Of a stretch of 64,000 bases of DNA, positions 36,148 to 40,785 are shown one piece after another. The first letter of the stretch is position 1. The number at the start of each line of letters is the position of its first letter. Below the pieces are notes generated by a model. That model was not told the origin of the DNA, did no database searches, and worked only from the letters and a program-made list of their open reading frames with translations. Source of the stretch: Alcanivorax limicola (GTDB taxonomy: Bacteria; Pseudomonadota; Gammaproteobacteria; Pseudomonadales; Alcanivoracaceae); the NCBI RefSeq assembly GCF_019931215.1, contig NZ_JAIOUB010000003.1, forward strand, positions 434,001 through 498,000, given 5' to 3'. The position numbers were made by a program, and so were the translations under genes.

Positions 36148-36891
36148 ATGATGCGCAAGACACTTATGGCCGCTGGCCTGGTTGCCCTGGCACCTGCCGC
36201 GCAGAGCGCCCCCCTGATTGATGTCTATGCGGGAGCCTATACCTGGAATGCCAGTCTCTCCGGCACCATTGCCTCCGGCAACGACGATATCGATATGAAA
36301 GATGATCTGGGCTACGGGCGTGAGCGGCAGAACGTGCTGTATTTCGGGCTCGAGCATGTTGTGCCAATGGTGCCGAATGTGCGGCTCAAGCATATGGTGA
36401 TGTCAGACTCCTCACGGAACACCATCGAGCGCAGTTTCCAGTTTGGTGGCGGTACTTTCGTGATTACGGATGAGGTGCAATCGGAATTCGATCTGGACAT
36501 GACGGACCTCACGCTCTATTACACGCCGCTGGACAATGTGGTGAAGCTGGATGTGGGTCTGAATGTGCGCCGTGTGGACGCTGATTTCCGTATGCGCAGC
36601 GGCGGCGATGACGGGCGCGAGACGGCGAAGGAAACCTTCCCGATGCTGCATCTGGCGGCGCGCGGCAATCTGCCTTTCAGCGGCCTCTACGCCGGTGCCG
36701 AGATCAATGCCATTCGTTATGACGGCAGCCGTGTCGAGGACTACACCGTCAAGGCGGGTTGGGTCTCGGATTTCCTGCTCGGCGTCGAGCTGGGCTACAG
36801 CCAGTTCAATGTCGAACTGGACGATGTCAGCGGTCTGGATACCGATCTGGAATTCGGCGGGCCTTACCTGGCGCTCTCACTGACATTTTGA
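36148..36891 (+). CDS. Outer-membrane beta-barrel protein, TIGR04219 family
   Basis: A 247-residue precursor with a signal peptide (cut about residue 21, AAQSA). The mature part, LIDVYAGAYTWNASLSGTI..., and the C-terminal ALSLTF with terminal Phe indicate an outer-membrane barrel. Start and pattern, including the DIDMKDDLGYGRERQN segment, match the TIGR04219 family as I remember it. The function is unknown. An in-frame ATG directly follows the first, so either may be used. Confidence 0.8.
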   Translation: MMRKTLMAAGLVALAPAAQSAPLIDVYAGAYTWNASLSGTIASGNDDIDMKDDLGYGRERQNVLYFGLEHVVPMVPNVRLKHMVMSDSSRNTIERSFQFGGGTFVITDEVQSEFDLDMTDLTLYYTPLDNVVKLDVGLNVRRVDADFRMRSGGDDGRETAKETFPMLHLAARGNLPFSGLYAGAEINAIRYDGSRVEDYTVKAGWVSDFLLGVELGYSQFNVELDDVSGLDTDLEFGGPYLALSLTF

Positions 36892-36953: not shown

Positions 36954-37700
36954 TCAGAGCTTCAGCCTTTCCGCCAGTTCGAACCACAAGCCCCGGTACG
37001 CCCGCGCGGCGGGCGTATGCGGCGCAAACTCCCCCACGGGTGCGGCATGCTCGCCCATCTGTTCCACATGCGTTGAGTAGGGTATCCAGGTTTTCAGACG
37101 CTGGCGCATCAATGCGGGCGGTTTGACCAGCATTTCCACGTGCAGCAGACGCCGCCGGTCCACCATATTGAAGAACGGCAGCACCGTCAGGTGTTTGAAG
37201 GCTTTCTGGTCCAGCCACTGTACCACCTGCTCGAAGGCACGCAGTGACAGATGTGTGGGGATCACCGGCACCACCAGATAATCCGCTGCCGCAAAGATGC
37301 TCTCTGCCACCGGGCTCAGGGTTGGCGGGCAATCCAGCAGAGTCAGGCTGGTGGTTTCGCTCAGGGGGTCTATCAGGCGCTTGAGACTGCTGCGCCCGGC
37401 ACCGGGCTCGGCGAGCTTTAGGTCCAGATTGCGCAGGCTGATGTCGGCGGGGATAACGTCCAGGCCGGGCCAGCGGGTTTCCATGCGCAGATTGCCAATC
37501 TGCTGCTTGCCCTTGATCAGGCTGCCGGTCTTGTAGGGGCGGCTGCCATCCACGCCCAGATAGAAGCTGGCCGCACCCTGGGGATCGAGATCCCACAAGA
37601 GTGTGCGGTGTTTCCAGCGCGCCGCATGCCAGGCAATGTTGACGGCGGTGGTGGTTTTGCCGACACCGCCCTTGAGGTTGTAGAAGGCAATCGTATGCAC
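36954..37700 (-). CDS. Orphan ParA/MinD-family ATPase
   Basis: A 248-residue protein with deviant Walker A (LKGGVGKTTTAVNIAW, about residues 8-23), the A' motif WDLDPQGAASF and Walker B LLDCPPTLS, so a dimerising ATPase that positions a cargo on nucleoid or membrane. No parB, chemotaxis, flagellar or carbon-storage gene is adjacent; the neighbours are an outer-membrane protein and a divergent DUF4062 gene. The cargo is unknown. The start is GTG at 37700 with GGGAG upstream; an upstream ATG (37718) lies ahead of that site and is less likely. Confidence 0.9.
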   Translation of the reverse strand: MHTIAFYNLKGGVGKTTTAVNIAWHAARWKHRTLLWDLDPQGAASFYLGVDGSRPYKTGSLIKGKQQIGNLRMETRWPGLDVIPADISLRNLDLKLAEPGAGRSSLKRLIDPLSETTSLTLLDCPPTLSPVAESIFAAADYLVVPVIPTHLSLRAFEQVVQWLDQKAFKHLTVLPFFNMVDRRRLLHVEMLVKPPALMRQRLKTWIPYSTHVEQMGEHAAPVGEFAPHTPAARAYRGLWFELAERLKL

Positions 37701-37844
37701 TGTAAGCTCTCCCGGCACCCGGTATCAGCCTGTACTGTACCCCAAGCCGGTGATAATCGACCACACGGGAGGCGCTGTTGCGGATCAGGACCGGTCGAGC
37801 GAGCGCAATGCACCCGGCGCGCTGACTTGTGACCGGAGGGCAAA

Positions 37845-37870
37845 GTGGCTTTAATACGTGGCTTCAGAAC
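37845..37870. repeat. Weak 13-bp direct repeat in the parA/DUF4062 gap
   Basis: GTGGCTTTAATAC (37845-37857) is followed by GTGGCTTCAGAAC (37858-37870), 10 of 13 identical. Only weakly supported. Confidence 0.3.
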
Positions 37871-37945
37871 ATGTGACGCTATTCATATTTCAACGTCGCT
37901 GGCGGTGCAGTCAGGCCCGCCAGACGTCCGGTGACAGGAGCCCGC

Positions 37946-38968
37946 TTGAGTATCGAGCGCAAGTATCAGATTTTCGTCAGTTCGACTTACAGTGACTTGC
38001 CTGAGGCGCGGCAGGAGCTGATGCTGGGTCTGTTGTCCATGGGCATGATTCCGACGGGCATGGAGTTGTCGCCAAGTGAATCGAATAATCACTGGACGAT
38101 GATTCAGAAGCTGATCAACGAATGTGACTACTATCTGGTGCTGGTGGGCGGGCGCTACGGCACGCTGTCGCCGATCGGCCTCTCCTATACCCACCGCGAG
38201 TATGTCTACGCGGCGACCAAAGGGAAGCCGGTACTGGCGTTGCTGCATGATGCGCCCGACTTCTTGCCGCCGGAGCGGCGAGAAACCTCTCGCGAAGGGG
38301 ATGTGCGTTTCAATGATTTTCGCCAGCTTTTGCAACAAAAATGCCTGGTGCGTTACTGGAACGCTCCCACTGATCTGAGCGCAGCCGTACAAAAAGGGCT
38401 GCCGGCGCTGATCGAGAAATTTCCCGGATCGGGCTGGGTCAGGGCCACGGACTCCAGCGCCACATCAGAGCTGGAGGTGCGTGCGCTCAAGCAGCGCATT
38501 GAGGCCCTGGAGAGCGAGCGAGACGTCTTGACGCAAAGCATGCGGCCGCCGCTGGAGCAGCTGGCCCGTGGTGCGGATCAGGTGCTGCTGGGCTACAGCT
38601 GTAACGTGTTCGTGAAAGGGGATTGCAAGGTGACTGCGGCCCGCACCAGCATCAGCTGGGATCAGGTGATCGCCAGCGTGGCACCACAGATGCTCGACGA
38701 AGTATCAGAAATGGTGATGCGTCAGGCGCTGGAGGAGCACATCGCACCGCGCGCGCTCACCGATGTGCAGGTGCAGTGGCCCAAGGCTCATGCGGTGCGT
38801 AACGTCGTGCTGGACACCGACAGCTTCAATCAGGTCAAGATTCACTTGCGTGCGCTGGGCATGATCCGCAAATGCCCGCCACGCCCGGGGCGGTCGCAGA
38901 TCACCTGGCAACTGACCCCGCTGGGGGATCAGGCCATGACCCAGATACTGGCCCGCAAGCGCCGCTAG
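37946..38968 (+). CDS. DUF4062 protein with C-terminal winged-helix-like region
   Basis: The 340-residue protein starts with a DUF4062 domain (about residues 6-105: YQIFVSSTYSDLPEARQ, then HREYVYAATKGKPVLALL). DUF4062 is a TIR/SEFIR-like fold often fused to other modules in putative signalling or defence proteins; Glu85 in the HREY motif sits where TIR-type enzymes carry a conserved Glu. Residues 174-200 are a likely coiled coil, and 285-336 (DSFNQVKIHLRALGMI...WQLTPLGDQAM) look like a winged helix. The start is TTG at 37946, chosen because ACAGGAG lies 5 bases upstream and the protein then begins right before the domain. Divergent from parA. Activity unknown. Confidence 0.8.
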   Translation: MSIERKYQIFVSSTYSDLPEARQELMLGLLSMGMIPTGMELSPSESNNHWTMIQKLINECDYYLVLVGGRYGTLSPIGLSYTHREYVYAATKGKPVLALLHDAPDFLPPERRETSREGDVRFNDFRQLLQQKCLVRYWNAPTDLSAAVQKGLPALIEKFPGSGWVRATDSSATSELEVRALKQRIEALESERDVLTQSMRPPLEQLARGADQVLLGYSCNVFVKGDCKVTAARTSISWDQVIASVAPQMLDEVSEMVMRQALEEHIAPRALTDVQVQWPKAHAVRNVVLDTDSFNQVKIHLRALGMIRKCPPRPGRSQITWQLTPLGDQAMTQILARKRR

Positions 38969-39019: not shown

Positions 39020-40738
39020 TCAGCGCTTGATGCGGCGTTCCAGGAAATCCAGCACCTCATCAACCGACAACATGGTGTTGTCGTCATCGCGGCGGGCGCG
39101 ATATTCCAGCTGTCCCTCATCCAGACCGCGTTCAGCGACGACGATGCGGTGGGGAATGCCGATCAGTTCGGCATCAGCGAGTTTCACGCCCAGGCGTTCT
39201 TTTTCCCGGTCGTCATACAGCACCTCGTAGCCAGCGGAGGTCAGATCCGCGTAGAGCTGCTCGCAGACTGCCTTCTCGCGTTCGCTTTTCTTCAGATTGA
39301 CCGGGATCAGTGCGATCTGGAACGGGGCAATGGCGTCAGGCCAGGTGATGCCGCGCTCGTCGTGATTCTGTTCAATGGCAGCGGCCACAACACGGGTCAC
39401 GCCGATACCGTAGCAGCCCATGGGCATGACCACGCTCTTGCCATTTTCGTCCAGCACGGTGGCTTTCAATGCTTCGGAGTACTTGGTGCCGAGCTGGAAA
39501 ATATGGCCCACCTCGATGCCCCGCTTGATGGTCAGCGTGCCTTCGCCATCGGGGCTGGCATCGCCCTCCACGACGTTGCGCAGATCAGCAATGTCCGCCA
39601 GGGGCAGATCGCGCTCCCAGTTGATGCCGAAGTAATGTTTGCCGTCCTGATTGGCGCCAGCGGCGAAATCGCTCATCAGCGCCACACTGCGGTCGATCAC
39701 GCAGGGGATCGGCAGATTCACCGGGCCGAGGCTGCCGGGGCCTGCACCAATGGCTGCGCGTATTTCGCCTTCGTCGGCGAAACGCAGCGGGCTGGCGACT
39801 TGTGGCAGTTTTTCGGCCTTGATGTCGTTGAGTTCGTGATCGCCGCGCACCAGCAGTGCAACCAGTTTGCTGCCCGTCTCCGGCGCTGCCGCGACCACCA
39901 GCGTTTTCACGGTCTTTTCCACCGGCAGTTTGAACTGTGCGACCAGCTCGGCAATGGTGCGGGCGTCGGGTGTATCAACCAGCGTCATGCTCTCGGCAGG
40001 CGCGGCGCGCTCCCCCGTTGCAACTGCTTCGGCCAGTTCGACGTTGGCGGCGTAGTCCGAGCTGTCGGAAAAGGCGATGGCGTCCTCACCGGAGGAGGCC
40101 AGCACATGGAATTCGTGGGAGGCGGAGCCGCCGATAGCGCCGGTGTCCGCCGCCACGGGGCGGTAGTCCAGGCCGAGGCGATCGAAGATGCGGCAATAGG
40201 TGTCGTACATGACCTGATAGGTGGCGGCCAGCGATGCCTGATCTACATGAAAGGAGTAGGCGTCCTTCATGATGAATTCCCGCGACCGCATGATGCCGAA
40301 ACGGGGCCGGATTTCATCACGGAACTTGGTCTGAATCTGATAAAAATTCATCGGCAGCTGCTTGTAGCTGTGCAGCTCGTTGCGCACCAGATCGGTAATC
40401 ACTTCTTCGTGGGTCGGGCCCAGACAGAAAGCATTGTCGTGGCGATCGGTGATGCGCAGCAGCTCCGGGCCATAGGCCGGGGCACGGCCGGATTCTTCCC
40501 ACAGTTCCATGGGCTGTACCACCGGCATCAGCACTTCCTGGGCGCCGGCGCGATCCATTTCTTCCCGGATGATCTGCTCCACCTTGCGCAGTACCCGCAG
40601 GCCCAGCGGCAACCAGTTATACAGGCCGGAGGACAGTTTGCGGACCATGCCGGCGCGCAGCATCAGCTGGTGGCTGATCACGACAGCGTCGGAGGGTGTT
40701 TGCTTGACGGTGGCCAGCAGGTAACGGGAGGTGCGCAT
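39020..40738 (-). CDS. proS: Prolyl-tRNA synthetase, bacterial type with editing domain
   Basis: Class II synthetase that charges tRNA-Pro. The 572-residue length is the bacterial form with the INS editing domain inserted between motifs 2 and 3 (about residues 225-405), which removes Ala-tRNA-Pro. Visible are motif 1 ([19 protein letters not shown]), motif 2 ([17 protein letters not shown]), motif 3 with [17 protein letters not shown], and the C-terminal anticodon-binding domain. ATG 40738 is chosen over 40783 because the family begins MRTSRYLL. Confidence 0.97.
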
Positions 40739-40785
40739 TGCCAAATCCTGATTGTCCGGTGAAAGACGGCCATTGTATGGCATCC

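What the first reader, a model, noticed from the sequence alone, without database searches (positions are those of the whole stretch)
36954..38968. Orphan ParA divergent from a DUF4062 protein
A positioning ATPase without ParB or a known cargo shares a 245-bp divergent region with a TIR/SEFIR-like DUF4062 protein carrying a probable winged helix. Neither is a housekeeping gene. The pair may be a two-gene module, perhaps for signalling or defence, and is the best candidate here for an undescribed system.
Basis: inference. Interest (0 to 1): 0.55.

Follow-up and report, generated by a model that had tools for sequence, protein, structure and literature searches.

The report
Core TIR-like NADase beside orphan ParA
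A bacterium related to the oil-degrading Alcanivorax carries a relative of a newly described anti-phage suicide enzyme next to a lone positioning ATPase; the two genes stay together within one bacterial family but were not found together elsewhere, so a shared job is possible but not shown.

Summary
A 248-aa orphan ParA (36954..37700, -) and a 340-aa DUF4062 protein (37946..38968, +) diverge from a 245-bp gap. The DUF4062 protein is not undescribed: it is a full-length homologue of Klebsiella KpSwz (9e-42; PDB 10wc), the portal-triggered NAD+-destroying Swarozyc defence protein of a May 2026 preprint. It keeps the catalytic Glu and the winged-helix domain, not the aromatic hairpin tip that grips the portal.

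By its relatives the host is Alcanivoracaceae. There the DUF4062 gene is core (45 of 46 genomes), under purifying selection, one clade, in a block AidB-ParA-DUF4062-proS; published Swarozyc is patchy. ParA is in 43 of 46, adjacent in 40. Outside the family the link was not found: adjacent in 0 of 13 genomes with both, and this ParA beside 0 of 47 other named DUF4062 loci. A two-gene module is unproven, although ParA and DUF4062 distances track each other within the family.

Unexpected: related copies in two other families lack the catalytic Glu (7 of 7 loci) yet persist in fixed places, hinting at a non-NADase role in this branch.

The parts
36954..37700 (-). orphan ParA/Soj-type deviant-Walker ATPase, 248 aa, GTG start (ORF open to 37718)
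   Evidence: AAA_31 4.8e-32; phrog_164 'ParA-like partition protein' 7.2e-50; phmmer 3.1e-23 to Soj 1wcv, KGGVGKT and DLDPQG aligned; start from family alignment
37701..37945 (.). divergent intergenic region, 245 bp; no block seen to be conserved across the family (129-458 bp in relatives)
   Evidence: output cut in the middle
37946..38968 (+). DUF4062 / Swarozyc-type protein, 340 aa, TTG start (ORF open to 37931)
   Evidence: Pfam DUF4062 1.2e-25; KpSwz 9e-42 over residues 7-341 of the 345-aa ORF; AF2 model pLDDT 87.5, pTM 0.49
37946..38440 (+). TIR-like/NDT-like domain, residues 1-165 of the TTG-start protein; catalytic Glu 85 (Glu 90 of the longer ORF)
   Evidence: fold matches span residues 4-165; Glu aligns with the residue mutated to Ala in KpSwz E97A
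38441..38560 (+). linker with long predicted helix (172-199), counterpart of the KpSwz stalk
   Evidence: function inferred from PMC13174449
38561..38965 (+). C-terminal auxiliary (AUX) winged-helix domain with beta-hairpin (tip KGDCK) and HAVRN motif
   Evidence: hhalign to KpSwz AUX 97.3%, E 2.3e-11
39020..40783 (-). proS (proline--tRNA ligase), the conserved neighbour on the DUF4062 side
   Evidence: NF006625 7.5e-256; within 600 bp of DUF4062 in 31 of 33 Alcanivoracaceae loci (rows)
36148..36891 (+). TIGR04219 outer-membrane beta-barrel gene beside ParA; this flank was found only in near relatives (L062, L167, L168)
   Evidence: 6.1e-63

Best explanation
Two proteins that most likely work separately and share a stable chromosomal neighbourhood. 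(1) The DUF4062 protein is a Swarozyc-type sensor-effector: a TIR-like NAD+ hydrolase, held idle in a head-to-head oligomer by its stalk, with a C-terminal winged-helix AUX domain that binds a ring-shaped or repetitive trigger. Binding would line up the AUX domains, pull on the stalks, reposition the TIR-like domains and destroy NAD+, stopping growth before phage release. Shown here: homology over the full length, catalytic Glu, predicted fold of both domains, purifying selection, core distribution. Inferred from KpSwz: NADase activity, oligomer, phage trigger. The trigger surface is probably not the same, because the aromatic hairpin tip of KpSwz is replaced by a conserved G-x-C-K tip. (2) The ParA is an orphan deviant-Walker ATPase, expected (from what is known of ParA proteins, not tested) to bind the nucleoid as an ATP dimer and position an unknown cargo. 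Its cargo is more likely something other than the DUF4062 protein, since 43 of 56 genomes outside the family that have this ParA type lack a detected DUF4062 relative.
For: DUF4062: KpSwz 9e-42; AUX-to-AUX E 2.3e-11; catalytic Glu in 21 of 21 Alcanivoracaceae rows; TIR/NDT fold; winged helix; mechanism of KpSwz from PMC13174449. Independence: 0 of 13 non-family genomes with both genes have them adjacent; co-occurrence outside the family not significant (odds ratio 1.97, Fisher p 0.095); 0 of 47 other named DUF4062 loci show a ParA match in the flanks held (tblastn 1e-6); L195 has DUF4062-proS-thioesterase without ParA; G002, in the window's genus, keeps DUF4062 without this ParA; no conserved intergenic block seen.
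Against: Within the family the pair is never split where both are assembled (31 of 31), even where the AidB side or the proS side is rearranged (L167, L168, L170). The DUF4062-ParA distance correlation is 0.984 over 17 loci, highest of 28 gene pairs and above TamA-TamB 0.959. Against a defence role: a core, slowly changing gene among housekeeping genes, AUX as conserved as TIR (0.644 and 0.636), and relatives without the catalytic Glu.
Confidence: 0.55

Rival explanations
1. A true two-gene module in Alcanivoracaceae: ParA is the partner of the DUF4062 protein, for example holding it on the nucleoid or in an inactive array, or being the guarded host component whose disturbance releases the NADase.
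For: Never separated in 31 of 31 loci and adjacent in 40 of 43 genomes (the other three have the genes on different contigs); distance correlation 0.984, partial 0.754 with six neighbours removed; first in the 26-locus, four-gene comparison, not first in 4.7% of bootstraps. Of the three family genomes without this ParA, G012 has a broken DUF4062 gene and G002 one on a long branch.
Against: No linkage found outside the family. The partial correlation is only third of 28, behind TamB-TamA 0.824 and AidB-thioesterase 0.797, a pair with no known tie. The raw correlation falls to third in the two-genus subset and second in one genus. G002 keeps an intact gene with its Glu. proS and AidB are nearly as stable neighbours.
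Confidence: 0.22
2. The Pseudomonadales branch of DUF4062 with the HAV-type AUX is not an anti-phage system but a housekeeping nucleotide-processing or regulatory protein, catalytic in some families and not in others.
For: Present in 45 of 46 family genomes; recurrent housekeeping neighbours in other families; catalytic Glu lost in 7 of 7 f6/f7 loci and in one more f6 genome, G278; best structural matches of the TIR-like domain are nucleotide N-glycosidases, Z 14.2 against 11.3 for SARM1.
Against: KpSwz and TEP1 are NADases (PMC13174449); Glu kept in all 21 Alcanivoracaceae rows; a Z difference of 3 does not tell the substrate; the f6/f7 rows lie on long branches and may have changed function alone.
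Confidence: 0.3

Closest known systems
Swarozyc, KpSwz of Klebsiella pneumoniae (DUF4062 TIR-like NADase; PMC13174449; PDB 10wc, 11cq, 11cv)
   Same: One protein with N-terminal DUF4062 TIR-like domain, catalytic Glu, stalk helix and C-terminal winged-helix AUX, aligned over query residues 7-341.
   Different: 31% identity; AUX hairpin tip KGDCK instead of the portal-anchoring Trp-Tyr; core gene among housekeeping genes with a divergent ParA; no activity tested.
Orphan ParA ATPases (PpfA, ParI, BcsQ, also McdA; passages of review PMC9178275)
   Same: Soj-like sequence, both lysines of KGGVGKT, no ParB neighbour.
   Different: No known adaptor or cargo; the best NCBIfam equivalog model scores far under its cut-off (79 of 180 bits).
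SARM1 and other TIR NADases; DNPH1-type nucleotide N-glycosidases
   Same: Same fold in the N-terminal domain.
   Different: Sequence identity under 20% in the structural matches; substrate of the window protein untested.

Membership tests
Swarozyc (bacterial DUF4062 defence protein) | DUF4062 domain | tested here: met
   PF13271 1.2e-25, 89.9 bits against cut-off 24.7
Swarozyc (bacterial DUF4062 defence protein) | catalytic Glu at the E97 position | tested here: met
   Glu85 (TTG numbering); 21 of 21 Alcanivoracaceae rows. Chain residue 84 is Ala, as in the E97A construct; the offset of 13 follows from W225 of the chain being W238 of the paper
Swarozyc (bacterial DUF4062 defence protein) | C-terminal AUX domain of winged-helix fold homologous to KpSwz AUX | tested here: met
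   hhalign 97.3%, E 2.3e-11; model and fold matches
Swarozyc (bacterial DUF4062 defence protein) | Trp-Tyr portal anchor at the hairpin tip (seen in KpSwz; not shown to define the family) | tested here: not met
   G-x-C-K tip in 21 of 21 Alcanivoracaceae rows
Swarozyc (bacterial DUF4062 defence protein) | patchy distribution and defence neighbours (typical in the preprint, not defining) | tested here: not met
   45 of 46 family genomes; neighbours PlsB, ProS, TamA/TamB
Swarozyc (bacterial DUF4062 defence protein) | portal-triggered NADase and abortive infection | not testable with these tools
   needs protein and phage assays
ParA (orphan) | deviant Walker A KGGVGKT with both lysines; Asp region DLDPQG | tested here: met
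   KGGVGKT and D38, L39, D40, Q42 invariant, P41 and G43 at 90% or more in 18 aligned rows; aligned with Soj
ParA (orphan) | no ParB beside it | tested here: met
   neighbours identified
two-gene ParA-DUF4062 system | linkage in genomes outside one family | tested here: not met
   0 of 13 genomes with both; 0 of 47 named loci

The most novel reading that the evidence does not exclude
A vertically inherited branch of the DUF4062/Swarozyc family has become a core gene of Alcanivoracaceae and works with the divergent ParA as a two-component switch: the ParA array on the nucleoid positions or restrains the NADase, whose conserved GxCK/HAV winged-helix domain reads an internal or ParA-linked signal instead of a phage portal. 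Relatives of this branch in two other families do a related job without catalysis.
Probability: 0.15. Interest if true: 0.7.

Novelty: new variant of a known kind. Interest (0 to 1): 0.42.

Why it matters
It separates two kinds of DUF4062 protein: the exchangeable, patchy phage-defence type and a slow, vertically inherited type. If the second kind is still a suicide NADase, a family of marine oil degraders (recalled ecology) carries a fixed abortive-infection gene; if not, it points to a cellular role for the domain that human TEP1 uses in the RNA vault (PMC13174449). The ParA association can be tested with one pair of deletions.

Tried and rejected
Rejected: 'undescribed system' for the DUF4062 gene, because the KpSwz structure and preprint exist. 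Rejected: linkage as a general rule. Rejected: a shared operator in the divergent gap; no conserved block was seen in 32 aligned gaps (the printed alignment was cut in the middle, so a short motif there could have been missed). Not supported: carriage of close relatives by phages or plasmids; the only two phage records match at 26%, the listed plasmid rows at 26-36%. Against that, PHROGs holds a family of unknown function that matches the DUF4062 protein over its whole length (phrog_15411, 1.9e-72), so phage-borne homologues of this architecture exist. Tried: PADLOC on both window genes gave only a P-loop match for ParA (PDC-M28B, 8.2e-8). Tried: PADLOC on five genes near the second copy in G019, one weak match (4e-4), no clear defence neighbour. 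Tried: repeats there, nothing array-like. Tried: a CHAD partner for the window's ParA; none in the genome at E <= 0.001. Tried: Foldseek and VIA-align against the PDB copy; KpSwz was not among the rows shown, perhaps because of the copy's April 2026 date; Foldseek's top rows mix TIR proteins with GTPases (EF-Tu, Ras) at like E-values, so that search alone would not settle the fold. Literature: 'Swarozyc' gave 0 papers although PMC13174449 uses the name, so that search is unreliable; Alcanivorax+antiphage+TIR gave 1 unrelated review; ParA+TIR domain+defense system+NADase gave 0; the preprint's main text has no 'ParA', 'Alcanivorax' or 'Pseudomonadales'. A claim of co-evolution was kept as suggestive only, because related rows inflate distance correlations and subsets rank it lower. 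The three confidences given are not exclusive and do not sum to 1.

Full report
Observation. Alignments to relatives set the likely starts at GTG 37700 for ParA (248 aa) and TTG 37946 for the DUF4062 gene (340 aa), which leaves a 245-bp divergent gap. Pfam names them AAA_31 (ParA type, 4.8e-32) and DUF4062 (1.2e-25). Identified neighbours are housekeeping-type genes: UppP, an RsmJ-like methyltransferase, PlsB, a zinc-type dehydrogenase, a TIGR04219 outer-membrane protein, ProS, a hotdog thioesterase, TamB and TamA.

What the DUF4062 protein is. phmmer against the PDB finds one significant relative, KpSwz (10wc, 11cq, 11cv), E 9e-42, query residues 7-341 of the 345-aa ORF. The preprint PMC13174449 (I read the summary, introduction, results and discussion, and searched passages; figure legends and supplements not read) reports that KpSwz is a TIR-like NADase activated by a phage portal, with catalytic E97, an autoinhibited dimer, and a winged-helix AUX domain whose hairpin tip (W238, Y239) anchors on the portal. 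In the PDB chain W225 corresponds to W238, so chain residue 84 is position 97; it is Ala there (the E97A construct) and Glu in the window protein. AlphaFold models: whole protein pLDDT 87.5, pTM 0.49; AUX alone 94.5, pTM 0.86. The first domain matches DNPH1-type N-glycosidases (4kxl_A Z 14.2, rmsd 2.4, 126 aligned) and SARM1 TIR (7cm7_A Z 11.3, rmsd 3.5, 133 aligned); a SelB GTPase scores Z 11.8 (4acb_A, rmsd 3.6, 143 aligned), so the structure alone does not single out TIR. AUX matches winged helices (MukF 9gm7_D Z 10.4, rmsd 2.9, 92 aligned; PadR and MarR proteins Z 9-10). AUX aligns to KpSwz AUX with hhalign E 2.3e-11. The hairpin is there (strands 212-223 and 226-237), but its tip is KGDCK, with no aromatic pair.

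Who carries it. Named relatives place the genome in Alcanivoracaceae (the genome itself is unnamed). In the 46 family genomes held, a match at E <= 1e-20 occurs in 45, and in 41 of 41 of good quality; the miss is a 64%-complete genome, and one further copy (G012) is broken. In a tree of 87 rows the 21 Alcanivoracaceae rows form one clade (SH-aLRT 99, quick search), apart from a 40-row clade of scattered copies from many phyla. Selection is purifying: dN/dS 0.051 (window against L167), and AUX is as conserved as the TIR part (0.644 and 0.636 mean identity over 34 rows). A class-wide search with AUX (369 genomes, E <= 1e-10) hit only this genome and one other of the same order. The preprint gives 1-15% of genomes and a patchy pattern for bacterial DUF4062. 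So this looks like a core, vertically inherited form. G019 in the same family holds a second copy (33%) that falls in the scattered clade, near what looks like a transposase gene (judged by eye): both modes in one genome. A PHROGs family of unknown function also matches the full length (1.9e-72), so this architecture occurs in phages too.

The ParA link. In the family, ParA (E <= 1e-50) is in 43 of 46 genomes; in 40 of these 43 it is the divergent neighbour, and in the other three (G321, G322, G326) the genes lie on different contigs, two of these ParA genes within 140 bases of the start of their contig. Among 33 Alcanivoracaceae loci (family assigned by me from titles and matches), ParA is adjacent in 31 of 31 with room for it (in L179 only its first part is on the contig); the other two are cut by contig ends. 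In the rows, proS lies within 600 bp of DUF4062 in 31 of 33, and AidB within 1 kb of ParA in 25 of 28. Thus AidB-ParA-DUF4062-proS is one conserved block, and ParA-DUF4062 is its firmest joint: it survives the changed ParA-side flank in the window, L167 and L168, and the loss of proS in L170.

Outside the family the link was not found. In 293 genomes of the order, DUF4062 (E <= 1e-15) is in 55 and this ParA type (E <= 1e-35) in 68; hits at 1e-35 to 1e-39, seven or so of the 68, may be ordinary chromosomal ParA. Twelve family genomes have both adjacent; 13 others have both and none adjacent, four of these about 300-520 kb apart on one contig and nine on different contigs of draft genomes. Co-occurrence outside the family is not significant (odds ratio 1.97, p 0.095). 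None of the other 47 named DUF4062 loci has a ParA match in its flanks (flanks up to 8 kb, some shorter). L195, outside the family, has DUF4062-proS-thioesterase and no ParA, so the proS link does not need ParA. ParA loci outside the family: 5 of 20 have a CHAD-domain gene just upstream in the same direction (one of the five tested with Pfam, the rest by clustering); no other family of neighbours recurs in more than 4 of 20.

Signs of a tie. Distances of DUF4062 and ParA correlate at 0.984 over 17 loci, highest of 28 pairs, above TamA-TamB (0.959); the partial correlation, 0.754, is third, behind TamB-TamA 0.824 and AidB-thioesterase 0.797, a pair with no known tie. The raw value stays first without the xenomutans group (15 loci) and in the 26-locus, four-gene set (not first in 4.7% of bootstraps), but is third in the two-genus subset and second in one genus. 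The three family genomes without this ParA are G002 (DUF4062 intact, Glu kept, long branch), G012 (DUF4062 broken, at a contig end of a draft) and G020 (64% complete, neither gene). This is suggestive only.

A core branch with members that lack the Glu. Across the order many DUF4062 copies share the AUX motif HAV (43 of 88 rows, including all 21 Alcanivoracaceae), and GxCK is in 30 of 88, 21 of them Alcanivoracaceae. Of 25 loci clustered (22 outside the family, plus G002, G012 and the second copy of G019), 6 have an agcS-type gene in the stretch (next to DUF4062 in 5) and 7 a pair of Nudix genes close by (one member of each cluster tested). In the two families coded f6 and f7, 7 of 7 loci examined lack the catalytic Glu (f6: V, L, M, L, L; f7: A, A), although an HA motif persists; G071's and G278's copies agree (A and T). 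Three further f6 genomes with a match (G028, G180, G296) were not examined for this. One f7 pair is 67% identical (dN 0.264; dS saturated). This weakens a pure suicide-enzyme view of the branch and is the most surprising item found.

Verdict. The DUF4062 gene is a new variant of a known kind, Swarozyc-like, with sequence and fold features met but activity and trigger untested. The ParA is an orphan ParA of unknown cargo. A joint module is possible inside this family and unsupported elsewhere.

Noticed in passing
L157, L158, L160, L162, L165 (f6) and L152, L076 (f7): DUF4062 copies with the catalytic Glu replaced (7 of 7), kept beside two Nudix genes and, in the five f6 loci, rnf/nth-type genes: possibly catalytically dead housekeeping DUF4062.
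   Followed up: partly
L129, L133, L135, L137, L146: The same orphan ParA type lies directly downstream of a CHAD-domain gene; CHAD domains bind polyphosphate (start of the abstract of PMC6537752 in the listing), so this ParA may position polyphosphate granules in those lineages. A word search of PMC9239181 on granule spacing finds no 'ParA'.
   Followed up: partly
L079:8565-9725: Second, mobile-type DUF4062 copy in genome G019, at the end of a run of about a dozen small same-strand ORFs and near what looks like a transposase gene; no array-like repeats found.
   Followed up: partly
L060 (G002) and L074 (G012): Family genomes without this ParA: in G002 a TetR-like (judged by eye) and two other ORFs lie between DUF4062 and AidB; in G012 the DUF4062 gene is broken (in-frame TAG and a frame change) at a contig end.
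   Followed up: partly
plasmid records: 163 of 181 plasmid records with a DUF4062 match are from Staphylococcus; the Staphylococcus rows listed (20-35 kb) match only about 57% of the query (residues 1-198), so they probably have another C-terminal part.
   Followed up: no
L200, L205 (Alloalcanivorax xenomutans, A. balearicus): The DUF4062 gene is faster here (52-54% identity to four congeners, where one reference pair keeps 79%); ParA is mildly faster, proS is not, but AidB and the thioesterase are too.
   Followed up: no
phrog_15411: A PHROGs family of unknown function matches the whole DUF4062 protein (1.9e-72), so full-length homologues occur in phage or prophage genomes.
   Followed up: no
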